Source: Clostridia bacterium (GTDB lineage Bacteria; Bacillota; Clostridia; Christensenellales; Aristaeellaceae). From it: a stretch of 64,000 nt of DNA. The stretch is from the NCBI GenBank assembly GCA_017448975.1, contig JAFSKN010000036.1, positions 44,140 to 108,139 of the forward strand, written 5' to 3'. The position numbers were made by a program, and so were the translations under genes. The notes under the pieces were generated by a model. The model was given only the letters and a program-made list of their open reading frames with translations, was not told the origin of the DNA and did no database searches. Below are positions 1 through 15,891 of the stretch, in pieces (position 1 is the stretch's first letter; each line of letters opens with the position of its first letter).

Positions 1-990
1 GACCTGGAAGAAAACCTTTCCCAGATTCAAAAGGAACTGATGGACGGTACCTACAAGGTGGGGCCGTACCGGGAATTTTATGTGCGCTACCCAAAACCGC
101 GTCTGGTGATGGCGCTGGGCTTTCGGGACAGGGTGGTGCAATGGGCGATCTACCGGCAGATTGACCCCTATGTGGATAAGCGCTTCATTACGCACAGCTA
201 CGGTTGCCGGAAGGAAAAAGGAACGCTGGCGGCTGCACAGCAGTTGATGGAATGGCTGCGCATCATCAGCCGGAAACCAGACGCGAAGGATTACTGGATC
301 ATCAAGGGCGACATCAGCAAGTATTTCTATCGCGTGGATCATGAAATCGTGATGGACTGTTACCGGGAAATCTGCGACGAAGACTGGTTCCTGTGGCTGA
401 TGGACACCATCATCAACAACCCGGACGTGCCGTTCGGCTTGCCGGAGGGAATGGGGATAGATGATTGCCCGAGGGATAAACGCTTGTACAGTGTGGGGCA
501 ACCCATAGGCAACCTTACAAGCCAGGAAACCGCGAACATTTATCTTGACCGATTCGACCAATGGTGCAAGCATACGCTCCGCCTGAACAAATACGCCCGG
601 TACATGGATGATTTTCAGGCGATTGTGAAAGGCAGGGAGAACGCGGAGAGGATCATGCGGGAAATGACGAATTTCCTGCGGGACAAACTCAAGCTGAACA
701 TGAGCGCGAAAGCGCGTATTGTGCGGGCAGACAGGCCGGTTGAGTTTGTGGGCTTCATCGTATCTCCCCACGGGCTGCGGCTGCGGAAGAAGACTGTATA
801 CCATGTGAAGCGGAGCCTGAAACACCTGAAAAACCTGTACGCGGATTGGATCATCAGCTTTGACCGGGTAAAGGAATCCATTATCTGCTATTACGGGATG
901 TGTAAGCGCTGTAATGCCCGCTATCTGGAAACATGGATTGAAGAAAACATCATCTTGCAGCGAAAGGAAAAGCCGGATGAAGACGATTGA
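1..990 (+). CDS. Reverse transcriptase, DGR type (5' end outside window)
   Basis: RNA-directed DNA polymerase cut by the window start: the frame is open from base 1 and no start codon is visible. Seen in order: the first catalytic Asp in IIKGDISKYF (about visible residues 97-107), IGNLTSQETANIYL (about 170-183), the catalytic YMDD in ARYMDDF (about 200), then EFVGFIVS and a basic thumb ending near IEENI. The IGNLTSQ form, instead of the QGxxxSP form of retrons and group II introns, is the known hallmark of diversity-generating retroelement (DGR) enzymes, which copy a template repeat with adenine errors into a variable repeat of a target gene, often a phage tail protein. No maturase or HNH domain follows. 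The next gene overlaps it by 14 bases and leads into the lysis genes, so the target gene and template repeat would lie left of the window. Reverse transcriptase is certain; the DGR assignment is strong but untested without the repeats. Confidence 0.88.
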   Translation, partial: DLEENLSQIQKELMDGTYKVGPYREFYVRYPKPRLVMALGFRDRVVQWAIYRQIDPYVDKRFITHSYGCRKEKGTLAAAQQLMEWLRIISRKPDAKDYWIIKGDISKYFYRVDHEIVMDCYREICDEDWFLWLMDTIINNPDVPFGLPEGMGIDDCPRDKRLYSVGQPIGNLTSQETANIYLDRFDQWCKHTLRLNKYARYMDDFQAIVKGRENAERIMREMTNFLRDKLKLNMSAKARIVRADRPVEFVGFIVSPHGLRLRKKTVYHVKRSLKHLKNLYADWIISFDRVKESIICYYGMCKRCNARYLETWIEENIILQRKEKPDEDD

Positions 991-4650: not shown

Positions 4651-5202
4651 ATGCTATACAAAACGATATACGCAGACCCGCCCTGGATGGAGTACGGCGG
4701 CGGGAAAATAAAGCGCGGCGCGGACAGGCATTACCCGCTGATGGACACGGAAGAAATCAAGGCCCTGCCGGTTCAAAATCTGGCAGACCCGGAAGGATGT
4801 CATCTGTATTTGTGGACGACAAACAACTTTCTCCCGGACGCGCTGGAGGTTGTGAAAGCCTGGGGCTTCGAGTATGTGACGATCATCACCTGGACGAAGG
4901 ACAGGAAGGGCCTGGGCCAGTATTACCGGGGATTGACCGAGCATTGTATCTTTGCCAGGACGAAAAAGATACTGCCCTATAAGCTGCTGGACGGAAAGCG
5001 ACAGCAGGGCGTGACGGGTTTCTATGCGCCCAAGGGAGAACACAGCCAGAAACCGGAGGAAATGCGGGAAATGATCGAGAGAGTGAGCTACGGCCCGCGC
5101 ATTGAGCTATTCGCCCGCGAGCATCACCCCGGCTGGGCCGCCTGGGGAAACGAGATCACAGACGCCGTTCCCTTTGCGGGGGGGGGGGGGGGTAATGCTT
5201 GA
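4651..5202 (+). CDS. MT-A70 family adenine-N6 methyltransferase with poly-G 3' end
   Basis: 183 residues. DPPW near residue 9 (YADPPWMEYG) is the catalytic motif of MT-A70 family S-adenosylmethionine-dependent adenine methyltransferases; LYLWTTNNF and a C-terminal EHHPGWAAWGNE are also typical of prophage members. Phage copies probably methylate DNA and protect against host restriction. Oddity: the last codons contain 15 consecutive G (5178-5192), so the product ends in a Gly run. Length change of the tract would alter only the extreme C terminus: one more G gives an immediate TAA, one fewer gives a longer Phe/Glu tail. The catalytic core is not affected. Confidence 0.85.
   Translation: MLYKTIYADPPWMEYGGGKIKRGADRHYPLMDTEEIKALPVQNLADPEGCHLYLWTTNNFLPDALEVVKAWGFEYVTIITWTKDRKGLGQYYRGLTEHCIFARTKKILPYKLLDGKRQQGVTGFYAPKGEHSQKPEEMREMIERVSYGPRIELFAREHHPGWAAWGNEITDAVPFAGGGGGNA
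5178..5192 (+). repeat. Homopolymeric tract of 15 G
   Basis: Fifteen uninterrupted G inside the 3' end of the methyltransferase gene. Such tracts slip during replication and are hallmarks of phase-variable genes in other bacteria. It may also be an unstable assembly or sequencing call. Confidence 0.9.
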
Positions 5203-7149: not shown

Positions 7150-7280
7150 ATCCGAATCTCACGCCCTTCCTTGACGACGATGTACTTATTATCACCGATC
7201 CAAACCACGGACGAAACGGGAACGCCGTACTCCTTTGCCAATGATTCCCGGTCTTTGCTTGCTTTTTCAATCGGGTGCAT
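7146..7280 (-). CDS. Tiny phage protein (44 aa)
   Basis: A 44-codon frame, start ATG 7280 with AAGGAGGAACC directly upstream and an SD-adjacent hairpin copy before that. It starts MHPIEKASKDRESLAKEYGV and ends VVKEGREIRI, followed by TGA overlapping the next ATG. The ribosome site, the hairpin and the four-base coupling make it a real gene in spite of its size. Function unknown. Confidence 0.65.
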   Translation of the reverse strand: MHPIEKASKDRESLAKEYGVPVSSVVWIGDNKYIVVKEGREIRI

Positions 7281-7291
7281 GGTTCCTCCTT

Positions 7292-7318
7292 GCCCGCGCA
7301 TGATGCCCACGGGCGGGC
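7292..7318 (-). repeat. SD-adjacent hairpin, copy 1
   Basis: GCCCGC/GCGGGC arms (on the - strand) around a 15-base loop, ending one base before the AAGGAGG of the 44-aa gene. The loop reads ATCATGC where other copies have ATGGTAC. Confidence 0.85.
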
Positions 7319-7326
7319 GTGATGCC

Positions 7327-7632
7327 TTAGAATTTAATGGCTACAAGGGACATAAGCATATGCGCTGCCGTCAACAGGCTATCAGCGGTGACGTTCACCA
7401 CATAGAGCAAGGCGCGGGGGTCAACGTCGGCAGGGCAGGGCGTTTCCCACACGAAGAAATATTCTTCCCCGGTACGCAGAGAAAACCGCTTGCGCTCCCA
7501 CTCCGAAAAGGATGATATGCTCTCGTCGGTGGGGCGGTCATAGGTAATAGCGATGTCGCTGCGCCGTCCGTACAGGTGTATCATGTCCTCGATCCGCTGC
7601 GCAATATCCCGCATTTCATCATCACGTGCCAT
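7327..7632 (-). CDS. Phage protein, unknown
   Basis: 101 residues, start ATG 7632 with AAGGAGCCGAG upstream. Small, mixed alpha/beta-looking protein (DIAQRIEDMIHLYGRR, EEYFFVWETP). No family recognised. It belongs to the set of genes preceded by the repeated hairpin. Confidence 0.6.
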   Translation of the reverse strand: MARDDEMRDIAQRIEDMIHLYGRRSDIAITYDRPTDESISSFSEWERKRFSLRTGEEYFFVWETPCPADVDPRALLYVVNVTADSLLTAAHMLMSLVAIKF

Positions 7633-7647
7633 GCTCGGCTCCTTCCT

Positions 7648-7674
7648 GCCCGCGTATGATGCCCACGGGCGGGC
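7648..7674 (-). repeat. SD-adjacent hairpin, copy 2
   Basis: Same arms as copy 1, with loop variant ATCATAC. It ends three bases upstream of the AAGGAG of the gene at 7327-7632. Confidence 0.85.
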
Positions 7675-7682
7675 GTAATGAT

Positions 7683-8078
7683 TCAGGCGCGTTGTTCCTG
7701 ACTGCTTTCTTTGAACAGCTTCCAGGCGGTGATGTTATTGGCGACATAGGCCAGTTCACCGCCCAGCGCACCCATGTCCTGCCATGCGCAGCGGCCCTCG
7801 TCCAGGGTCTTGATCGTTCCGACGCGGTTGCGGATATACTCGCGCTTTGCCTTGTCGAAGTGGACGAGCGCCACCCTGATCCAGCACCCTTCATTCCCGT
7901 CCTCTGTTACGCACTCAATGTAATCATCGTCGATATCAAACGTCATGGAATCACGGTCGAAATGCGCGTAATCAATAACAGACGAACCGGTTTTCTCCCC
8001 TGAATAGTAGCCCTTTTCGTTAGGTTCAATACCGAAGATTTCAGCATAGGCGGCGGACAAAATCTGCATCGTGGTCAT
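7683..8078 (-). CDS. Phage protein, unknown
   Basis: 131 residues from ATG 8078 (AAAGGAGCACGCT upstream). A longer upstream reading of the same frame exists but runs through the hairpin and the neighbouring gene and is not used. Acidic, Tyr-rich N-terminal half (YAEIFGIEPNEKGYYSGEKT, FDIDDDYIECV). No family recognised. Confidence 0.6.
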   Translation of the reverse strand: MTTMQILSAAYAEIFGIEPNEKGYYSGEKTGSSVIDYAHFDRDSMTFDIDDDYIECVTEDGNEGCWIRVALVHFDKAKREYIRNRVGTIKTLDEGRCAWQDMGALGGELAYVANNITAWKLFKESSQEQRA

Positions 8079-8093
8079 AGCGTGCTCCTTTCT

Positions 8094-8120
8094 GCCCGCG
8101 TACCATGCCCACGGGCGGGC
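8094..8120 (-). repeat. SD-adjacent hairpin, copy 3
   Basis: Consensus copy (loop ATGGTAC). It ends three bases before the AAAGGAG of the gene at 7683-8078. Confidence 0.88.
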
Positions 8121-8136
8121 AAATGATCGTGCGGCG

Positions 8137-8508
8137 TTACCTGTCCGCGTAGAACACAAGGCCATCAAATTGCCTGCGAATCGCGGCGCGGTAGGTTTTC
8201 TGGCTTTCCACGTGGGGCATAATGTTTGTTCTGTAAAATGCAGCGCGTCCCTGTTCTTCCATGCGCGACATCTCTTTGCACAGGTAGGAAATGCTGTCAC
8301 GCTCCTGCTTATCATGCGCGTCGTTTTGGATGAACCGCATATAGGACACATCAGCCAGGGAAAAGGCGCAGGAGCCTGTCTCTTGCACGGCGCGGCGCAC
8401 GTCCGCTTCCGTCCAGTTTGCCCCAGCGTTTGCAAGGGCTTCAATCAGGCCGTGCGTTTTGATAATGCGGTGCAGTTCGTCAAACTGCTGGCTTGTGATT
8501 TCGCTCAT
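8137..8508 (-). CDS. Phage protein, unknown
   Basis: 123 residues, ATG 8508 with GGGAGG upstream, 16 bases after the stop of the DUF2786 gene and without a hairpin copy between them, so it is probably read through from that gene. Largely helical (QQFDELHRIIKTHGLIEALA, ISYLCKEMSRMEEQ). No family recognised. Confidence 0.6.
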   Translation of the reverse strand: MSEITSQQFDELHRIIKTHGLIEALANAGANWTEADVRRAVQETGSCAFSLADVSYMRFIQNDAHDKQERDSISYLCKEMSRMEEQGRAAFYRTNIMPHVESQKTYRAAIRRQFDGLVFYADR

Positions 8509-8524
8509 TACCGTATGCCTCCCG

Positions 8525-9262
8525 TCACATCACATCCGCAAGGGTTAATTGCTCATGATTCCCGGCTTGTCCAGGCAGGGATTTGGTGGGCTTAAATGTT
8601 CTCCCGTCGTTATATCCCTGGCGCACGTATTGAGCATCCGGGCTTTCAAAGCGGAATTTGATCTTGTTTTTCTTTAGCGTTCCCAAATAGTCCTCAACCT
8701 CCTTGGGAATGACCAGGGAAAGGGCAAGGCTTTCTTCTCCGTCCTGCCCCTTGAATTGCGCTTTGTATTGGTCACGCAGGCCACGGGCAAACGCGGGCGG
8801 GTAGCTGGATGCCCATACGCGCATCGTATCATTGCGCATACGCTGGTCTGAAAGGCAGCGGTTGATCGCTTCGCGCTGGCGTTCTTCCTCGCGCTTGATG
8901 TGGCGCACGGCATACCTGAAAATATCCTGGACGATATACGGATCATCGTCCAATCCGGCAAAGCCCACAGTGCATACGGTGCTTCCTTCCCTGTGCCGCG
9001 AAATGGCGACACAGCAATGGTTCTCCGCAATAATGCGGGACAGATCGGCTTTCCAGTTATCCTTCACGCCGGAAAAGCATTGATCCGTAAAGACTTGATG
9101 CAATTCACGGGGCGCGTCCTTTTGCTGCACGTCCTTTTCGGACAGCTTATAGCGGGCCATCAGGTCACGCGCTTTCATGAGCGCGGCCTTTGCCTCGTGA
9201 TCCTCCGCGTCGGCGGCCAGGGCCAGCAGCTTTTGAATCTTCTCAACAATGGATTCGTTCAT
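8525..9262 (-). CDS. DUF2786 domain protein
   Basis: 245 residues. The N-terminal 45 residues (IVEKIQKLLALAADAEDHEA, ARDLMARYKLSEKDV) match DUF2786, a short helical domain common in phage and plasmid proteins. The middle has a conserved-looking core with paired Cys-His region (ENHCCVAISRHREG) and a helical stretch rich in charged residues (HIKREEERQREAINR). The role of the family is not known; members are often near phage recombination or replication genes. ATG 9262 is chosen because AAGGAGG lies just upstream and a hairpin copy abuts it. Confidence 0.75.
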   Translation of the reverse strand: MNESIVEKIQKLLALAADAEDHEAKAALMKARDLMARYKLSEKDVQQKDAPRELHQVFTDQCFSGVKDNWKADLSRIIAENHCCVAISRHREGSTVCTVGFAGLDDDPYIVQDIFRYAVRHIKREEERQREAINRCLSDQRMRNDTMRVWASSYPPAFARGLRDQYKAQFKGQDGEESLALSLVIPKEVEDYLGTLKKNKIKFRFESPDAQYVRQGYNDGRTFKPTKSLPGQAGNHEQLTLADVM

Positions 9263-9273
9263 GGTGCCTCCTT

Positions 9274-9300
9274 GCCCGCGTACCATGCCCACGGGCGGGC
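9274..9300 (-). repeat. SD-adjacent hairpin, copy 4
   Basis: Consensus copy. Its 3' arm GCGGGC is followed by one A-containing step into AAGGAGG of the DUF2786 gene, so the hairpin touches the ribosome site. Confidence 0.88.
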
Positions 9301-9309
9301 GGCTGTGCG

Positions 9310-9552
9310 TTATCCAAAGTAGCAGAGGATCAGGAGCGGGCCGAAGAACAGGCCCAGGGCGGCGCCGCACAGGGACAGGGCGAAGCCGTTCATTTCCTCG
9401 TCCATGGCGCGGTCAATGCGTCGAAGAATGGCGCTGGCGCGTTCCTTCATGGACGGCTGCAAGGCGGCGTGACGCGGGGCGTAGGGCCTGACAGCGTGAC
9501 GCGGGGTGTAGGGGTACAGGATGCCGGTGGTGTTGGCGAGTTTCTGGATCAT
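9310..9552 (-). CDS. Small membrane protein of the phage operon
   Basis: 80 residues from ATG 9552. Basic N-terminal part with Tyr-Thr-Pro-Arg-His repeats (YPYTPRHAVRPYAPRHAALQ), then a C-terminal membrane segment (about residues 58-78, LSLCGAALGLFFGPLLILCY). The 15 bases from ribosome site to start (GGAGGATCGCACATG) are identical to those of the DUF3560 gene. Function unknown. Confidence 0.6.
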   Translation of the reverse strand: MIQKLANTTGILYPYTPRHAVRPYAPRHAALQPSMKERASAILRRIDRAMDEEMNGFALSLCGAALGLFFGPLLILCYFG

Positions 9553-9569
9553 GTGCGATCCTCCCTTCT

Positions 9570-9596
9570 GCCCGCGTACCATGCCCACGGGCGGGC
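9570..9596 (-). repeat. SD-adjacent hairpin, copy 5
   Basis: Consensus copy, ending four bases before the GGGAGG of the small membrane protein gene. Confidence 0.88.
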
Positions 9597-9604
9597 TATG
9601 CGCA

Positions 9605-10738
9605 TCAATCCATCTGGTAATACATGATGGATGTGAAGCCTTCTTGGTTCAGGCTTTCGGAAAACGTCTCGGCCATTTTGCTGTGACGGTTTCCTTGCCC
9701 ACTCTGAAAGCCGGAGATCACAAGGTAAGTGGGATTGCGGATCAGCTTATGGTCAGGCCCGTAATGATCCTTGAATGGTTTCCAGTCATAGCAGAGCAGG
9801 CCAGCGTCGTGGATTGCCTGTTCCGCGTCGGCCTTTTTCAATCCGCAGGCAGCGAAGTCCAGCGCGGGGGAATCGAAATTGCAGGTGCCGCCGTCCTCGT
9901 GGTCGATGTACTGGGCGGAAGCGACGGCGGCGCGTTTCAGCGCCCACGTTAAGCGCTTCGCGGCGTCCTGCCCATCCTGGGGATCGGCGTACAGGGCGGC
10001 GAAATTCTCGGCGCTCATGTCAACGCAGGGCTTGCCCGTCCCGTCTTCGCCGTGAAGTACGGTCACGCCGTCCGCAATGGTGAATGGCCTGCGGGGAATT
10101 GATTCCGCCGCGTCGTCATTCGGCCTGGGGGCCGGGTCGTTCCCGCGCCGCACATGGTCATAATCAAAGGCGATCATGTAATCAGGCCACAGCGCTTTAA
10201 TATCGTCAATGAAACGTTCGTCGAAACAAGCGTACTTGCTTTGCATGAGATGGCCGGAGCCGTCGCTGCTGATGGTGTTGAACGTGGCGGATTTATCCAG
10301 CTCGCGCCACCCCTCATAAATCATGAAGGATTTATTGTAGAGGTATTGGCGGCGCTTGTGACGCTTCTTGAAGGGCGTATAGTCAACCGCCACAGCGTCC
10401 CCATACTGCGCGTAGCCGGTCAATTCCGCGCCGTGATAGGTGATGCGCTCTGCCAGGGGGAAACCAAACTCGCCCAGGGAAACGAGCGTGTAGCGTTCAC
10501 CAGGGATCAGCTTGGCGCGGCAGAAAGCGGCTTGCAGGCGGCCCGCGTGAAGCTGGATCATTGCGTAAAACTCCCGTTCCGCGTCCTCGATGGTGGACGA
10601 GCGGGCAACGCTCAATTCATCGCCTGTCACGGCGTTCAGGACCATGGTTTCATACTGGCCGGGCGCGATCTCCGACGTGTCAATGATGATGTGCGGGCCG
10701 TTAGCTTTCGTCTCCTGGCGGAAAATGTGCTTGGTCAT
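9605..10738 (-). CDS. Large phage protein, unknown
   Basis: 377 residues from ATG 10738 (AAAGGAGCCAACACC upstream). The first 130 residues look like a YodL/antirestriction-type small-domain region (GEFGFPLAERITYHGAELTG, GDAVAVDYTPF), the middle contains a region of uncertain character and the end (residues about 300-377) another domain (HDAGLLCYDWKPFKDHYGPD, SGFQSGQGNRHSKMAET). No family can be named with confidence. The last part could be a nucleotide-binding or nuclease-like fold, but no catalytic motif is clear. Confidence 0.6.
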   Translation of the reverse strand: MTKHIFRQETKANGPHIIIDTSEIAPGQYETMVLNAVTGDELSVARSSTIEDAEREFYAMIQLHAGRLQAAFCRAKLIPGERYTLVSLGEFGFPLAERITYHGAELTGYAQYGDAVAVDYTPFKKRHKRRQYLYNKSFMIYEGWRELDKSATFNTISSDGSGHLMQSKYACFDERFIDDIKALWPDYMIAFDYDHVRRGNDPAPRPNDDAAESIPRRPFTIADGVTVLHGEDGTGKPCVDMSAENFAALYADPQDGQDAAKRLTWALKRAAVASAQYIDHEDGGTCNFDSPALDFAACGLKKADAEQAIHDAGLLCYDWKPFKDHYGPDHKLIRNPTYLVISGFQSGQGNRHSKMAETFSESLNQEGFTSIMYYQMD

Positions 10739-10755
10739 GGTGTTGGCTCCTTTCT

Positions 10756-10778
10756 GCCCTCGTGACCTCCGGGGCGGG
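10756..10778 (-). repeat. SD-adjacent hairpin, divergent copy 6
   Basis: A degenerate relative at the same place relative to the ribosome site: arms are changed (CCCGCCCC...GAGGGC on the - strand) and the loop is shorter, but position and GC pattern are kept. Confidence 0.55.
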
Positions 10779-10794
10779 AAATGATCTCGCGGCG

Positions 10795-12129
10795 TTATTC
10801 TGCGGGGTTTTCGTCGGCACGTTTGCGAATGATGCCGTCGCTCCAATCCGTGATACGCAGGCACCATTCTTCATGACTGCTCCACGCAACCTTCGTCGGC
10901 TTGCGGATGATGGGCTTTTCGTCGCCGGTCTGAAGGGTCACACTCTTATCCGTGGCCTTGATGATACGGAACGTGAGCTTATCGGTATTACCCTTCGCGC
11001 TGTTCCAGCGGTGGCAGGTATATTCATCGCCCACCCGGAACGGGTGCTTTTCGTCCCTCGCTTCCACGGCCTTGACGATGGCGCTGATCTCCGCGTAAGG
11101 CACAACGGGCGTGAAGACCGTTCCGCCAACCACTTCCCGGATCACACAATTCTTGGGGCCTACGGAAACAACCTCGCCCTCGTTGCCCCTGTACCGCACG
11201 ATATAACCGGGCTTGATATTGTCCGGCGAATACTGGACGCCGCCCAGCTTGTCCAGGCAATCCTGATAGAAGCCCAGCTCGTCCAGCTTCACTTCCATGC
11301 GCTCAAGATAATGCTCAAGCCACTCCTGCGCACGCTCGGCGGTGATGGTGACGGGCGAACCGTATTGATCCTTCGGCGTTTCGCCCTTTTCAAACGTGGC
11401 GACGTACCCTTCATAGAGCGTGACCAGCTTTTGCAGCTTGCGCAGGTCGCTTTCCCGCTCTCTGATGCGGCGCATCACGAAGCCCTTGCTCTGCAATTCC
11501 TTCTGATCGGCGGTAGCGCGGGCGCTGGCGGCGCGGCCCTTCCAATAGGCGGACTTGTTGAACTCCTTGAAACCTTGCTCGAAGCTGGCCCACATCCTTT
11601 CACGCTGGCGGGTGAAAGCGCGTCCCGCGCTGGTGTTGATATTGGGCTGGGTGAAGAAGGAAATGTCGCCGTGATGGTCGTTGATGGGCTTCTGCAAATG
11701 CTCGGCCCGCGTCGCGGCAGCGTCGGCGCGTCCCTCGTAACGATCCGCCCGCCGCTCTGCGCGTTCCGCCTTGCGCTCCATCTGCTCGGCGAAGGAAAGA
11801 CGCTCGCCTTCCGATCCGGCGTCATAGAGGCCCAGGGATTCGGCGCACTTCCGGGCGAAGTACAAATTCGGCTCCTTGCACCGGCTGATCCAGCAGCCGG
11901 AATGACGGCCCCACAGGAAATTGGCTTTCACGTCCTTGCGCTGCGCGTCTGTCAGCGCGTCATAGGTGGATTTCTGGAAATGCAGTTCCAGCTTGCCGGT
12001 TTCCTTGTTGACGATGAAATAATCATCGGGCGTTTCGTCGGCAGGCACGGCGGGCGCGTCCTGCGCGGGTGCGTACTTGGCGGCGAACTCGTCAGGGGTC
12101 ATGGTTTCCAATGCTTGCGTAATGTTCAT
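10795..12129 (-). CDS. DUF3560 domain protein
   Basis: 444 residues from ATG 12129 (GGAGGATCGCAC upstream). Near residues 45-100 a small F-x-W...W motif domain (LHFQKSTYDALTDAQRKDVK, FLWGRHSGCWISR) is followed by a strongly charged coiled coil (EQMERKAERAERRADRYEGR) that is the signature of DUF3560, a family found in phages, plasmids and conjugative elements. The C-terminal third (YIVRYRGNEGEVVSVG, PFRVGDEYTCHRW) looks like small beta-barrel domains. The N terminus carries the motif TPDEFAA, which recurs at the C terminus of the neighbouring BRCT protein. Function of the family is unknown. Confidence 0.75.
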   Translation of the reverse strand: MNITQALETMTPDEFAAKYAPAQDAPAVPADETPDDYFIVNKETGKLELHFQKSTYDALTDAQRKDVKANFLWGRHSGCWISRCKEPNLYFARKCAESLGLYDAGSEGERLSFAEQMERKAERAERRADRYEGRADAAATRAEHLQKPINDHHGDISFFTQPNINTSAGRAFTRQRERMWASFEQGFKEFNKSAYWKGRAASARATADQKELQSKGFVMRRIRERESDLRKLQKLVTLYEGYVATFEKGETPKDQYGSPVTITAERAQEWLEHYLERMEVKLDELGFYQDCLDKLGGVQYSPDNIKPGYIVRYRGNEGEVVSVGPKNCVIREVVGGTVFTPVVPYAEISAIVKAVEARDEKHPFRVGDEYTCHRWNSAKGNTDKLTFRIIKATDKSVTLQTGDEKPIIRKPTKVAWSSHEEWCLRITDWSDGIIRKRADENPAE

Positions 12130-12143
12130 GTGCGATCCTCCTA

Positions 12144-12734
12144 TCACGCCGCGAAAGCCGCGGCAAATTCATCGGGTGTCAGGGTCAAGGGCTGATTCAC
12201 GAGCGTCCAGAACCGTTGTGCGTCGATGATCTTCACGCCACGTTCCCGCGCCTTTTCGCGCTTGTAAGTGCCTGGATGCTCACCCAGCACAAGCAGCGTG
12301 GTACAGGCTGGCATATCCTCAAATGCCCTGCCGCCGTTGGCGGCCACGGCCTGAATGGCTTCGGCGCGTGTCATGTCCGGCAGCTTGCCAGAGAACGCCA
12401 CACATTCACCGGCGAAAGCGTTATTACCCACGAATGAGCGCGGCGCGGGAGCGGGGCGGGGCGCTGGCTGCTGAACTGGCGCGGGGGCTGGGCTTTCCGC
12501 CTGCTGGGGCGGCGCTGGCTCCATGGGAGCGGGAACCTTGCGCGGCCTGCCGCGCTTGCGCTTGGGCGTTTCGGGAATGGACGGGACGGGCGGAACGATT
12601 TCTGCGGCGTTGCTGGCCGCGCCTTGCTCCTGGGCGTTCCCTTCCGCGTTCCTGCGAAGCGCGGAGATTATCAGAACCGCAACAATAATCAGCGACAGGC
12701 CCATCAATGCGGGGATGATGTTGAAATTGCCCAT
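12144..12734 (-). CDS. Membrane-anchored AT-hook / BRCT domain protein
   Basis: 196 residues from ATG 12734, which has AAGGAGG eight bases upstream; an upstream GTG in frame overlaps that site and is rejected. Order: one N-terminal membrane segment (about residues 4-25, FNIIPALMGLSLIIVAVLII), an AT-hook-like KRKRGRPRK (about 58-66), a Pro/Ala linker, then a BRCT domain of the DNA-ligase type (ECVAFSGKLPDMTRAEAI, NGGRAFE, TTLLVLGEHPGTYKREKA, GVKIIDAQRFWTLV). Ligase-type BRCT domains bind DNA ends or phosphopeptides. The C-terminal tail contains TPDEFAA, also found at the start of the DUF3560 protein downstream. A membrane-tethered DNA-binding protein could attach phage DNA to the membrane; this is inference. 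Confidence 0.8.
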   Translation of the reverse strand: MGNFNIIPALMGLSLIIVAVLIISALRRNAEGNAQEQGAASNAAEIVPPVPSIPETPKRKRGRPRKVPAPMEPAPPQQAESPAPAPVQQPAPRPAPAPRSFVGNNAFAGECVAFSGKLPDMTRAEAIQAVAANGGRAFEDMPACTTLLVLGEHPGTYKREKARERGVKIIDAQRFWTLVNQPLTLTPDEFAAAFAA

Positions 12735-12749
12735 GCGGCGCACCTCCTT

Positions 12750-12776
12750 GCCCGCGTACCATGCCCACGGGCGGGC
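12750..12776 (-). repeat. SD-adjacent hairpin, copy 7
   Basis: Consensus copy; GCGGGC is followed directly by AAGGAGG of the BRCT gene. Confidence 0.88.
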
Positions 12777-12782
12777 GAATGG

Positions 12783-13661
12783 TCACGCGGCGTGATCCTC
12801 GATGTGCTCCACCATGTCCGCGAATTGCCACGGATTCAAGGCGTATTCTGGATTCTGCTCAACATTCGCGGAATAACCCTTGAGCAACTCGTGCAGAACG
12901 TGGGCGTGATAATTCCTGCGGCGTTCCGCGTTGCGGGCGGCTTCTTCCTCGGCTTCGCGCTGGGCGTTCTGCTGATTCTGCTGCTCCTTCTTTTCGGCGA
13001 TCCGCATAGGCAGCAGGAGCGCGTCACCGCGTTCGGACGTAAACCACACGGTTGCCAGCGCGTTCATTTTTCCGGTCAGCGTGTCGGCAAATGCTTTCGC
13101 GTCGTTGCCCATGACGGCCAGCATGTCGAGCAAAAACCCGGCGTTCACGGCGGGCTTTCCTTCGCCGAAATCCCAAATGGGCGTGAAGTTCTTGCGTTCC
13201 GCACGGGAAAGGGTGGCGCGGGCGTTCGCGGTTTCCACGGCGATATGCGCCTTGAGTTCGGCAACGGTGGGCAGTTCCAGCGCCAATGCCGGATCGTTGA
13301 CCGGCGCGTGGAATACCTTGTCCAAGTCAACCGGTTCCCCCGCGTCGTCGGGGCGTGCTTCCAGGGGCAGCGCGTCTTTCAGGCGATAGGCACGGAACCC
13401 GTCGCAGGCGCATTGACGGCCCTGGTCATCCGTCCAGGCGTAGGCCAGCGCGGGCCGATTGCTTTTCTTCACGTCGTTCAGCATCCGCGTGATGGTTTTC
13501 ACGGCGTCCAGGCTGCCGCGCTGGGACGCGGTTTCCAGGCGGATTTTTGCTTCCAGGTCGTCGGCGAGCTTGTGAAGCTCGATCTTCGCGCACACGCTAT
13601 GATCCGGGTCGAGCAGGGAAATGGCGGTGCGCACACGGGCGAGAATGTCCTGGGTGTTCAT
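12783..13661 (-). CDS. Phage protein, possible sliding-clamp-like fold
   Basis: 292 residues from ATG 13661 (GAAGGAGGCCAACACCAC upstream). The middle reads like a clamp-type or transcript-poor beta protein (ALAYAWTDDQGRQCACDGFR then AYRLKDALPLEARPD), reminiscent of DnaN-like phage proteins in which a residue row senses DNA, and the end is a charged helix (KEQQNQQNAQREAEEEAARN). The clamp idea rests on a short stretch only and is weak. No hairpin copy precedes the gene. It is upstream in the operon of the BRCT and DUF3560 genes, which suggests a DNA-related role. Confidence 0.6.
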   Translation of the reverse strand: MNTQDILARVRTAISLLDPDHSVCAKIELHKLADDLEAKIRLETASQRGSLDAVKTITRMLNDVKKSNRPALAYAWTDDQGRQCACDGFRAYRLKDALPLEARPDDAGEPVDLDKVFHAPVNDPALALELPTVAELKAHIAVETANARATLSRAERKNFTPIWDFGEGKPAVNAGFLLDMLAVMGNDAKAFADTLTGKMNALATVWFTSERGDALLLPMRIAEKKEQQNQQNAQREAEEEAARNAERRRNYHAHVLHELLKGYSANVEQNPEYALNPWQFADMVEHIEDHAA

Positions 13662-13810
13662 GTGGTGTTGGCCTCCTTCAAAATGGTTTCGCGGCATAAT
13701 GGCTTTCCGCGACGCGCTCCACACTTGCGCATGAGGCGCGTTTCGGCTGGGAGCCGTCCAGCCAGTCGTCAGGCGGAACAATACGCGGGCCAGCGCCCGC
13801 CTGAACGCCC

Positions 13811-14656
13811 TCATGCGAGGGCGTTCAGGGTGGCGGCCAGCTCCTGCGCGGCGCGGTACGCCTTGCACGTGAGCTTCTTGTTCCAGGAATGGAGCTGGGC
13901 GCTCCAGTAGAAACCGGCCTGCTCAATGGCTTCGCGCTGCGCCTGGGTGGGCTCGGCCTGGAACAATACGCGGGTGCGCTGGGTGGCCTCGTCAAAGGCG
14001 ATGTTCCAGCCCTTGCCGCAAATGGTGGTGCCGATCCAGGGCTTGTCCGCGGGGGCCTGCACAGCCACGGGAGCGGGGGCGTGAGCGGGAGCGGCCACGG
14101 GAGCGGGGGCGGGAGCGGGCTTGCTGGCCTTGCGGGCCTTGCTGGGCTTGTCCTGGGCGGCTTCCTGCGCATGGGCCTGCACAGCCACGGGAGCGGGGGC
14201 AGGAGCGGGAGCGGCCACGGGAGCGGGGGCGGGAGCGGGGGCGGGAGCGGGGGCGGGAGCGGGCTTGCTGGCCTTGCGGGCCTTGCTGGGCTTGTCCTGG
14301 GCGGCTTCCTGCGCGGGGGCCTGCACGGCCACGGGAGCGGGAGCGGGAACGGGAACGGGGGCGGGAGCGGCCTTGCCCTGGGCGAAATGATTCGCGGCTT
14401 TTGCAGCGGCGAGGCAGTTCGCGTACATGGGCATATCCGCACCCACATGGATGCGCACCGGCACGTCGCATACCTGGGCGAACACGTACACGTCGCCAGA
14501 GCGGGCAAGGCTGTACTGGGCATCGAACCGCCGACCGTTGACGGTCACGGTTTCGGGAGCGAAGCTCCACACGGGGGCGCTCACGGGAGCGGGTACGGGA
14601 GCGGGAGCCTGGACGGGAGCGGGGGCCTGGGTGTTGGCGGTTTTCGCGGTTTTCAT
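13811..14656 (-). CDS. Ala-Pro-rich repeat protein with C-terminal F-x-W motif domain
   Basis: 281 residues from ATG 14656; AGAAAGAGAGGCACCCCC lies upstream. It begins with an Ala/Pro tract, has a small domain (about residues 30-95, VTVNGRRFDAQYSLARSG), then a long low-complexity section of APAP units containing two near-identical blocks (QEAAQDKPSKARKASKPAPA twice), and ends with a domain (VLFQAEPTQAQREAIEQAG, FYWSAQLHSWNKK) similar in pattern to the N-terminal domain of the DUF3560 protein. The DNA of the repeats is itself repetitive (GGGAGCGGGGGC). Likely first gene of the - strand phage operon. Function unknown; the Pro/Ala arms may act as extended spacers. Confidence 0.7.
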   Translation of the reverse strand: MKTAKTANTQAPAPVQAPAPVPAPVSAPVWSFAPETVTVNGRRFDAQYSLARSGDVYVFAQVCDVPVRIHVGADMPMYANCLAAAKAANHFAQGKAAPAPVPVPAPAPVAVQAPAQEAAQDKPSKARKASKPAPAPAPAPAPAPAPVAAPAPAPAPVAVQAHAQEAAQDKPSKARKASKPAPAPAPVAAPAHAPAPVAVQAPADKPWIGTTICGKGWNIAFDEATQRTRVLFQAEPTQAQREAIEQAGFYWSAQLHSWNKKLTCKAYRAAQELAATLNALA

Positions 14657-15686: not shown

Positions 15687-15778
15687 TGGCGGAGAAGGAG
15701 AGATTTGAACTCTCGCTACGATTCACTCGTACTACTCCCTTAGCAGGGGAGCCCCTTCGGCCACTTGGGTACTTCTCC
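15687..15778 (-). tRNA. tRNA-Ser (anticodon GCU)
   Basis: 92 bases with encoded CCA. Acceptor GGAGAAG pairs with CTTCTCC, the anticodon arm CTCCC-CTGCTAA-GGGAG displays GCU (codons AGC/AGU), and the long variable arm and GTTCAAATC T-arm are typical of serine tRNA. Confidence 0.97.
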
Positions 15779-15802
15779 ATATGGCACGGTATAGGCACAA
15801 AA

Positions 15803-15891
15803 TGGCGGAGAGAGAGGGATTCGAACCCCCGGTGCCTTTCAGCATCACTGGTTTTCAAGACCAGCGCCATCAACCACTCGGCCATCCCTCC
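15803..15891 (-). tRNA. tRNA-Ser (anticodon UGA)
   Basis: 89 bases with encoded CCA. Anticodon arm CTGGT-CTTGAAA-ACCAG displays UGA (codons UCN, mainly UCA). Long variable arm and GGTTCGAATCC T-arm are present. It lies 24 bases upstream of tRNA-Ser(GCU) in the same transcript. Confidence 0.97.

What the first reader, a model, noticed from the sequence alone, without database searches (positions are those of the whole stretch)
7292..12776. Repeated hairpin directly against the ribosome site of seven phage genes
Six near-identical 27-base copies and one degenerate copy lie at the same place: - strand arms GCCCGC and GCGGGC, 3' arm ending 1-4 bases before AGGAG of a - strand gene (7280, 7632, 8078, 9262, 9552, 10738, 12734). 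Arms are constant while the loop varies (ATCATGC, ATCATAC, ATGGTAC), which suggests selection on structure. Genes without a copy (8508, 12129, 13661) are spaced so that read-through from the upstream gene is possible. The idea resembles start-associated sequences of cluster K mycobacteriophages, but sequence and host differ. It could set translation, protect mRNA ends or be bound by a phage protein: a shared translational regulon.
Basis: partly seen in the sequence, partly recalled or inferred. Interest (0 to 1): 0.72.

Follow-up and report, generated by a model that had tools for sequence, protein, structure and literature searches.

The report
Phage RNA pseudoknot between neighbouring genes
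Many gut and rumen phages place a tiny folded RNA knot in the gap between one gene's stop signal and the next gene's start signal, apparently so that ribosomes finishing one gene and starting the next are kept apart.

Summary
The six near-identical 27-base copies are real, occur nowhere else in the host genome, and lie between a stop codon and a Shine-Dalgarno (SD) site. The 27-mer reads as a compact H-type pseudoknot: leader GCC, 1 nt, 7-bp stem GCCCGTG/CGCGGGC, loop GGC that pairs with the leader, 6-nt loop. The 7-bp stem does. The leader-loop helix covaries in relatives: mainly GCC/GGC and ACC/GGT, rarely other types. The 'degenerate' seventh copy is a conserved subtype (17 rows). A scanner finds 186 elements in 300 loci chosen for the element, against 1 in reversed sequence. 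The upstream stop codon lies 6-11 nt before the knot in 111 of 176; the start codon lies 11-17 nt after the stem in 171 of 186. Downstream proteins fall into 149 clusters. No Rfam family matched. Closest known: the T4 gene 32 leader pseudoknot, same 27-nt layout, different use. Best mechanism, inferred: an intercistronic ribosome-facing spacer that lets the downstream gene initiate independently. A protein operator and mRNA-end protection are not excluded.

The parts
12750..12776 (-). pseudoknot (class 1) before gene 12734: leader GCC, C, stem, GGC, ATGGTA, stem
   Evidence: stop codon 6 nt upstream of the leader
9570..9596 (-). pseudoknot (class 1) before gene 9552
   Evidence: stop codon 8 nt upstream
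9274..9300 (-). pseudoknot (class 1) before gene 9262 (DUF2786/DUF7168 protein)
   Evidence: stop codon 9 nt upstream
8094..8120 (-). pseudoknot (class 1) before gene 8078
   Evidence: stop codon 16 nt upstream, with the CGCC..CATTT box between
7648..7674 (-). pseudoknot (class 1) before gene 7632
   Evidence: stop codon 8 nt upstream
7292..7318 (-). pseudoknot (class 1) before gene 7280; L3 is ATCATG
   Evidence: stop codon 8 nt upstream
10756..10778 (-). class-3 element before gene 10738: CCC + GCCCCGGAGGTCACGAGGGC, stem with a bulged A; leader-loop pairing weak (CC/GG)
   Evidence: 17 distinct rows in the held loci, this one (as L004) included
12144..12734 (-). gene behind an element; BRCT domain in the C-terminal half
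13705..13778 (-). hammerhead-like motif before gene 13661 (which has no pseudoknot)
   Evidence: TTCCGC CTGACGA stem II GAAA stem III TC GCGGAA; no hammerhead family among Rfam matches to E 10
13681..13696 (-). box like CGCCNCGAAAYCATTT, directly before the SD of gene 13661

Best explanation
Shown by comparison: an RNA element of about 25-30 nt that folds as a compact H-type pseudoknot (S1 of 3 bp between a leader, mostly GCC or ACC, and the hairpin loop; S2 of 6-8 bp; L1 1-2 nt; L2 0-1 nt; L3 4-7 nt) and lies between a stop codon and the next SD in phage operons. Inferred: the element begins 6-11 nt after the stop codon, where a structure meets the mRNA entry of a ribosome that has the stop codon in its A site, and mostly ends 14-15 nt before the start codon, near the mRNA exit side of an initiating 30S subunit. 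Its main partner is therefore the ribosome. It works as translational punctuation: it stays folded while the upstream gene is translated and terminated, keeps terminating ribosomes off the next SD, and presents that SD for fresh, independent initiation. It stands in for stop-start coupling where genes do not overlap.
For: Structure: stem covariation in class 1. Two viral scans used patterns with the loop, the 3' part of the stem and the SD but neither the 5' arm nor the leader: in the first, 19 of 19 distinct hits have at least 6 of 7 stem pairs and 18 of 19 have GCC 1-2 nt before the stem; in the second, 11 of 15 have the stem, 10 of these 11 have GCC there, and the 4 hits without a stem have no GCC. 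Leader-loop covariation in class 2, one fixed register with no condition on the leader: 40 of 50 strictly Watson-Crick (23 GCC/GGC, 15 ACC/GGT, 2 CGC/GCG); the other 10 are single cases, among them 1 ACC/GGC and 1 GCC/GGT. A search for loops GGC or GGA in the class-2 frame was a prediction test: SD-tied GGC loops had leader GCC in 9 of 11 in register and in the other two one base out of register; no GGA loop was SD-tied, so that half was not tested. Selected alignment A3. Placement: stop to leader 6-11 nt in 111 of 176, 0-5 nt in only 5; stem end to start codon 11-17 nt in 171 of 186, 14-15 nt in 94. [quoted passage not shown] at the mRNA entry (PMC7282821, passages); stop codon in the A site plus 6-11 nt is about that place. 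Independence from gene content: 186 downstream proteins in 149 clusters. Element genes seldom start within 35 nt of the previous gene (3 of 169), other genes often do (179 of 375; crude gene caller). Termination-reinitiation is almost abolished at about 20 nt (PMC10666635, abstract).
Against: No experiment. Predicted SD-to-start accessibility is hardly better than with the element shuffled (0.557 against 0.530; higher in 99 of 163), and without pseudoknot energies the stem forms with probability over 0.5 in only 122 of 163. A pure spacer does not explain why class-1 loops are so uniform (though they were partly retrieved by loop pattern). Some elements lack a near SD (L009; 10 of 22 SD-less GGT-loop stems with ACC; L157 at 722). 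A second stop-distance group at 20-35 nt (36 of 176). One virus record (L041 and L141) has leader ACC with loop GGC.
Confidence: 0.48

Rival explanations
1. Operator for a phage- or host-encoded RNA-binding protein that represses or activates many early genes together, as gp32 does on its own mRNA.
For: Multiple copies per phage, up to 8 in one locus. Same layout as the T4 gene 32 leader knot: the T4 record reads GCC-A-GCTATGA-GGT-AAAGTG-TCATAGC, 27 nt like class 1, with its 3' end 39 nt before ATG (helix assignment is mine, fitting the published description). SSB genes are present in 9 of 12 longer carrier records. Class-1 loop is uniform.
Against: No SSB among the Pfam families of 134 downstream proteins, so no autoregulation of the T4 kind. 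Loops and stems differ within one locus (17 of 118, crude rule). A protein operator needs no fixed distance to the upstream stop codon.
Confidence: 0.22
2. mRNA processing or end protection: the knot blocks exonucleases and sets the ends of single-gene mRNAs cut from the long transcript.
For: The same phage regions hold self-cleaving ribozymes: Pistol in L139 and Hammerhead_II in L130 above the gathering score, Hammerhead_II in L139 just below it, and 12 distinct hammerhead-like motifs, 0 in reversed control, one of them in this operon. Published precedent for hammerheads flanking prophage genes (PMC3088659, passages).
Against: Nothing ties a nuclease barrier to 6-11 nt after a stop codon and about 14-15 nt before a start codon. 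No cleavage site recognised in the element.
Confidence: 0.17
3. Boundary repeat that promotes exchange of gene cassettes by recombination, with no RNA role.
For: Repeats lie before genes of 149 protein clusters.
Against: Recombination needs sequence identity; here sequence changes while both helices are kept.
Confidence: 0.04
4. Translational riboswitch-like aptamer.
For: Small pseudoknotted riboswitches that overlap an SD exist (PMC9410914, seen only in the listing).
Against: The SD lies outside the fold; the few downstream genes with a family share no pathway (one search shows 25 of 40 families); no Rfam match.
Confidence: 0.03

Closest known systems
T4/T2 gene 32 leader pseudoknot (gp32 autoregulatory operator)
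   Same: Knot in a phage leader upstream of an SD. In the T4 record the layout is leader GCC, 1 nt, 7-bp stem, GGT, 6 nt, 7-bp stem: 27 nt, the same as class 1 (NC_000866; helix assignment mine). NMR of the T2 knot shows two coaxially stacked A-form helices (PMC3014915, passages).
   Different: T4 regulates the gene of its ssDNA-binding protein; the knot's 3' end is 39 nt before ATG with an AU-rich tract between. Here many copies precede unrelated genes and lie next to the SD, and no SSB was found among 134 downstream proteins.
Start-associated sequences (SAS/ESAS) of cluster K mycobacteriophages
   Same: Multi-copy repeats among non-structural genes, at translation starts of genes of different families.
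   Different: SAS is a 13-bp sequence that contains the SD itself; the authors found little support for mRNA hairpins in the ESAS inverted repeats (PMC3203893, passages).
STAXI motif (RF01728)
   Same: Repeated pseudoknot near genes for DNA-handling and antirestriction proteins.
   Different: At least two, usually three repeats in tandem, Enterobacteriales, frequent UUCG loops; the passages seen report no tie to stop and start codons (PMC2864571).
Frameshift-stimulating stem-loops and pseudoknots
   Same: About the same distance from the A-site codon to the structure (PMC7282821, passages).
   Different: Here a stop codon, not a slippery codon, is in the A site, and an SD with a start codon follows the knot.
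timP mRNA pseudoknot
   Same: A pseudoknot in an mRNA leader that is essential for translation initiation (PMC11228461, abstract).
   Different: Knot between two stem-loops (section title: SL1 and SL3) in one toxin mRNA; not a multi-copy intercistronic element.

Membership tests
T4 gene 32-type pseudoknot operator | H-type pseudoknot of the same layout 5' of the SD | tested here: met
   against the T4 record
T4 gene 32-type pseudoknot operator | regulated gene encodes a ssDNA-binding protein | tested here: not met
   no SSB among the 23 Pfam families found in 134 downstream representatives
T4 gene 32-type pseudoknot operator | AU-rich UUAAA tract between knot and SD | tested here: not met
   the SD lies within about 11 nt of the stem by the scanner's rule; in the rows listed the stem is mostly followed at once by AGAAAGGA or AAGGAG
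T4 gene 32-type pseudoknot operator | protein binds the knot | not testable with these tools
   needs a binding assay
SAS/ESAS | 13-bp GGGATAGGAGCCC containing the SD | tested here: not met
   not in the intergenes read; definition from PMC3203893
Any Rfam 15 family | covariance-model match | tested here: not met
   window at gathering: only two tRNAs; 7200-13800 at E<=5: none; 8 class-2 loci at E<=1: 3 weak matches, none at an element
STAXI | tandem pseudoknots in Enterobacteriales | tested here: not met
   single copies with other loops, mostly in contigs labelled Clostridia; Rfam's RF01728 did not match
H-type pseudoknot (structural class) | both helices supported by compensatory changes | tested here: met
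   S1 99.2% and S2 100% of cells paired, 7 pairs with two-sided changes, 0/500 shuffles (rows found by requiring a stem, 7 of 40 picked with leader known; 5 class-2 rows that do not pair in register were left out); unselected for the leader: 40 of 50

The most novel reading that the evidence does not exclude
A dedicated class of viral mRNA punctuation: a ribosome-facing pseudoknot held at set distances from both the terminating and the initiating ribosome, used before dozens of unrelated phage genes, alongside self-cleaving ribozymes as another way to turn one polycistronic transcript into independent translation units.
Probability: 0.42. Interest if true: 0.85.

Novelty: new variant of a known kind. 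Interest (0 to 1): 0.72.

Why it matters
Phage pseudoknots in translation control are known from few cases; [quoted passage not shown] Here is a family with strong covariation support, no Rfam match found, and placement at ribosome-footprint distances, which makes the question how genes in one phage mRNA are kept translationally independent directly testable with short reporters. It also helps to place gene starts in these phages.

Tried and rejected
Chance: rejected. Rfam: nothing. GenBank phages: the window element had no blastn match; two class-2 queries gave weak hits, most of them chance, and one that looks real, Dulem virus 34. Class-2 pattern in 398 genomes of the phylum: 0, so beyond 6 of 150 genomes of the host family with model R2 I can give no host range for class 2. 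SD accessibility as the mechanism: weak. T4-type autoregulation: no SSB downstream. One search fetched the wrong T4 region; one search is the right one. One search used a structure string one column off; in effect a slid control (S1 only, 36.7% paired). The gene-gap count marked only part of the elements and is superseded. Paper searches for the element itself listed nothing that I recognised as it; only open-licence PubMed Central papers are held, so absence from print is not shown. The class names are mine.

Selection told: loci were fetched by patterns for the element, and the patterns held part of the SD, so 186 in 300 loci is no frequency and the SD link is partly by choice. The pattern had no SD (but had the leader): by my reading, 28 of its 29 matches have an SD and start downstream (L018 at longer spacing), L009 does not; some of these are copies of one another. 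A1: 41 of the 44 rows (dropped: L041 2009 and window 3203 as chance, L029 as a duplicate) plus the window copy at 7278; one search required a stem of at least 5 pairs, so the percentage paired is by choice, the two-sided changes are not. The scanner requires Watson-Crick S1, so it cannot test S1; at least three of its 186 (L187, L167+, L333-) look like chance. Searches do not require the leader. In one search, 185 of 406 hairpins at SDs had a complementary leader (permuted mean 77, maximum 100 of 500), but without GGC/GGT loops it was 19 of 204 against 10-13 in three controls, so the rare S1 types (UCC/GGA, CCC/GGG, CGC/GCG, GGC/GCC) rest on single cases. For A3 I took 27 of the 35 rows and dropped L102, L193, L200, L208, L217, L240, L252 and L254 (L240 does not pair; L102, L208, L217 and L252 are one base out of register); I took 6 further GGC rows, left out L287 (one base out) and L206+11227 (ACC with GGG, a mismatch), and added 7 rows whose leader I already knew (L195, L107, L373, L010, L189 at 4165, L206 at 8436, L333).
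Full report
OBSERVATION. The six 27-base copies exist at the stated places, on the - strand, each immediately before an SD site. In the whole 3.08-Mb draft genome there are only these six, even allowing 3 mismatches, and the backwards pattern gives none; covariance model R1 finds six strong and two weak matches. They lie in what looks like a prophage: reverse transcriptase at 43-990, amidase/endolysin at 1132-2136 and MT-A70 at 4651-5202 on one side, two tRNA-Ser genes and then host-type genes (CCA-adding enzyme type, GerA) from 16090 on.

RELATIVES. An exact scan of IMG/VR with the 27-mer, three loop positions left open, gave 26 stretches. Scans with the loop, the end of the stem and the SD, but without the 5' arm or the leader, gave 22 and 16. 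The 5' arm and leader found there were thus not asked for: 19 of 19 distinct hits have at least 6 of 7 stem pairs and 18 of 19 have GCC 1-2 nt before the stem; for it is 11 of 15 with the stem and 10 of these 11 with GCC, and the 4 without a stem have no GCC. The stems change on both sides: GCCCGTG/CGCGGGC, GCCGGGA/TCCCGGC, GCCCGGT/ACCGGGC, GCCGGGT/ACCCGGC, GCCGGTC/GGCCGGC, GCCAGTG/CACTGGC and others. On 42 aligned elements three stem pairs are changed on both sides, in 20 cells; the whole structure with leader-loop pairs scores 0.184 against 0.038 in shuffles, 0/500 reaching it; the leader-loop pairs themselves hardly vary in this set. R1 matches 22 of 308 genomes of the host family (the window's own included; 16 of 50 genera) and 5 of 396 drawn from the order, one of them outside the family. 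A scan of named genomes gave 14 stretches; in 4 (L155, L156, L162, L168) no stem is seen, and the other titles name mostly Clostridia or Clostridiales/Eubacteriales MAGs, several from ruminant rumen or gut, but also Prevotella, Bacteroidales and Verrucomicrobia MAGs, which may be binning errors.

THE KNOT. A second class came up in a scan for hairpins before SD sites: leader ACCGR, stem GCSGGG, loop cGGTATAW, stem, AGAAAGGA, ATG. The pattern of its hairpin alone, without leader, gave 101 stretches; in the loci then held, 35 SD-tied elements with an 8-nt loop, most with leader ACC. As a prediction test I searched for loop GGC or GGA in the same frame. Over all held loci, SD-tied GGC loops had leader GCC in 9 of 11 in register, and the other two (L102, L287) have GCC one base out of register. 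SD-tied GGT loops had ACC in 20 of 27 in register; of the other 7, L208, L217 and L252 have ACC one base out, L272 has ACT, L240 does not pair, and two have GCC (G-U). The one GGG loop had ACC, a mismatch. No GGA loop was SD-tied. Stems without an SD served as background: none of 7 GGC loops had GCC, but 10 of 22 GGT loops had ACC, so some elements that look real lack a near SD. In a fixed register with no demand on leader or third loop base, 40 of 50 class-2 elements are strictly complementary. Rare types are UCC/GGA, CCC/GGG, CGC/GCG and GGC/GCC, each in one to a few rows. On A3 (40 class-2 rows, partly chosen; see Tried and rejected) S1 is paired in 99.2% and S2 in 100% of cells, 7 pairs have two-sided changes, and no shuffle of 500 reaches any of the five measures; the outer S1 pair is A-U 22, G-C 13, C-G 2, G-U 2, U-A 1, the middle one C-G 37, G-C 2, unpaired 1. 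Against: one virus record (L041, L141) has leader ACC with loop GGC, a mismatch at the outer pair. L3 in class 2 is mostly A-rich (ATAW, TAAA, AAAA, CAAA), as in other H-type knots (background knowledge).

THIRD CLASS. The copy before 10738, called degenerate, has the form CCC-GCCCCGGAGGTCACGAGGGC-AGAAAGGAG. The same form occurs in 17 distinct rows of the held loci, with the stop codon 5-7 nt upstream (measured to 4 nt before the stem) in 9 of them; one row (L144 at 2662) has no SD. Its stem carries a bulged A, and its leader-loop pairing is at best 2-3 bp, so whether it is a pseudoknot is open.

PLACEMENT. Scanning 300 loci (2.91 Mb, chosen for the element) for the full description gave 186 elements in 118 loci; the reversed loci gave 1. 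For 176 an upstream reading frame ends nearby: the stop codon is 6-11 nt before the leader in 111, 0-5 in 5, 12-19 in 11, 20-35 in 36, elsewhere in 13; for 10 no such frame was found, several at contig edges or after shorter frames. In the window the distances are 6, 8, 9, 16, 8 and 8. The stem ends 14-15 nt before the start codon in 94 of 186 and 11-17 nt in 171. Genes with the element start within 35 nt of the previous gene in 3 of 169, other genes of the same loci in 179 of 375; the gene caller is crude, and 45 of the 169 fell in its 200-nt-or-more bin, as 12734 did because its neighbour was missed. Many of the 20-35-nt spacers carry a second repeated box.

GENES. The 186 downstream proteins form 149 clusters by blastp at E 1e-5. 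Of 134 representatives scanned (of 149), Pfam names few: ArdC N-terminal domain (2), and one each of FtsK/SpoIIIE, integrase, RadC, BRCT, DUF2786, ribbon-helix-helix and others; PHROGs gave 40 families, of which 25 are shown, each in one member. The element is therefore tied to position, not to a gene family.

MECHANISM. What is shown is a conserved fold and a conserved double spacing. What is inferred is that the ribosome is the partner. [quoted passage not shown] passages). The fold is thus about the nearest that a terminating ribosome would not have to melt. Reinitiation is almost abolished at about 20 nt (PMC10666635 abstract), so downstream genes that start 46-58 nt after the previous stop, as in the window, should start afresh. 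I read the element as a spacer that stays folded under upstream translation and presents the SD. The thermodynamic model gives little help. A protein operator is the main rival, because the layout equals that of the T4 gene 32 leader, which I read from the T4 record: GCC, A, 7-bp stem, GGT, 6 nt, 7-bp stem, 27 nt in all, 3' end 39 nt before ATG. Yet no SSB was found among the 134 downstream proteins, although SSB genes are present in 9 of 12 longer carrier records.

NOVELTY. No Rfam family matches class 1 in the window or class 2 in 8 loci. The open-licence literature searched gave no description that I recognised. The architecture is known (H-type knots in translation initiation regions, T4 gene 32 above all); a multi-copy, intercistronic, ribosome-spaced use of it is, as far as I could search, new. 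I rate it a new variant of a known kind.

Noticed in passing
window 13778-13705 (-); L119 2340-, L123 9564+ and 10406+, L127 7481-, L128 3413+, L130 13358- and 12489-, L133 5236+, L139 1463+, 2077+ and 3149+: Twelve distinct hammerhead-like ribozyme motifs between phage genes, 0 in reversed control: NTCCGC-CTGANGA-stem II-GAAA-stem III-TC-GCGGAW, each with one extra pyrimidine (two nt in the window) between the core and stem II. By eye, loop II (GGCT, GGTT, GGT) is complementary to the bases after stem I (AGCC, AACC, ACC). Rfam names no hammerhead at the window copy.
   Followed up: partly
L139 799-874 and 5613-5679; L130 10506-10570 and 1757-1998: Pistol ribozyme (L139), Hammerhead_II (L130; in L139 just below the gathering score) and RT-2 RNA (L130) in the same phage regions, so transcript self-cleavage may be common there.
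   Followed up: partly
window 13696-13681, 10794-10779, 8136-8121 (-); many in L120, L121, L139, L017, L125: A second repeated intercistronic box, CGCCNCGAAAYCATTT. 142 hits with up to 2 mismatches; 37 directly before an SD and ATG, 19 before a pseudoknot, 86 elsewhere. GAAATCATTTC is a DNA palindrome; function unknown.
   Followed up: partly
window 43-990 (+): Reverse transcriptase (phrog_1423, E 5.9e-93; RVT_1), perhaps of a diversity-generating retroelement; template and variable repeats were not sought.
   Followed up: no
window 13825-14523 (-): Open frame with long repeats of GCTCCCGCCCCC type (Ala/Pro-rich), seen in the sequence.
   Followed up: no
L157 at 722 (-), L009 at 2103 (+), L203 at 1687 (-), L235 at 5035 (+): Elements with the right fold and leader but no near SD behind them; they may be remnants or have another role.
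   Followed up: no
window 15687-15891 (-): Two tRNA-Ser genes (gct, tga) where phage-type genes give way to host-type genes; possible attachment site, not tested.
   Followed up: no
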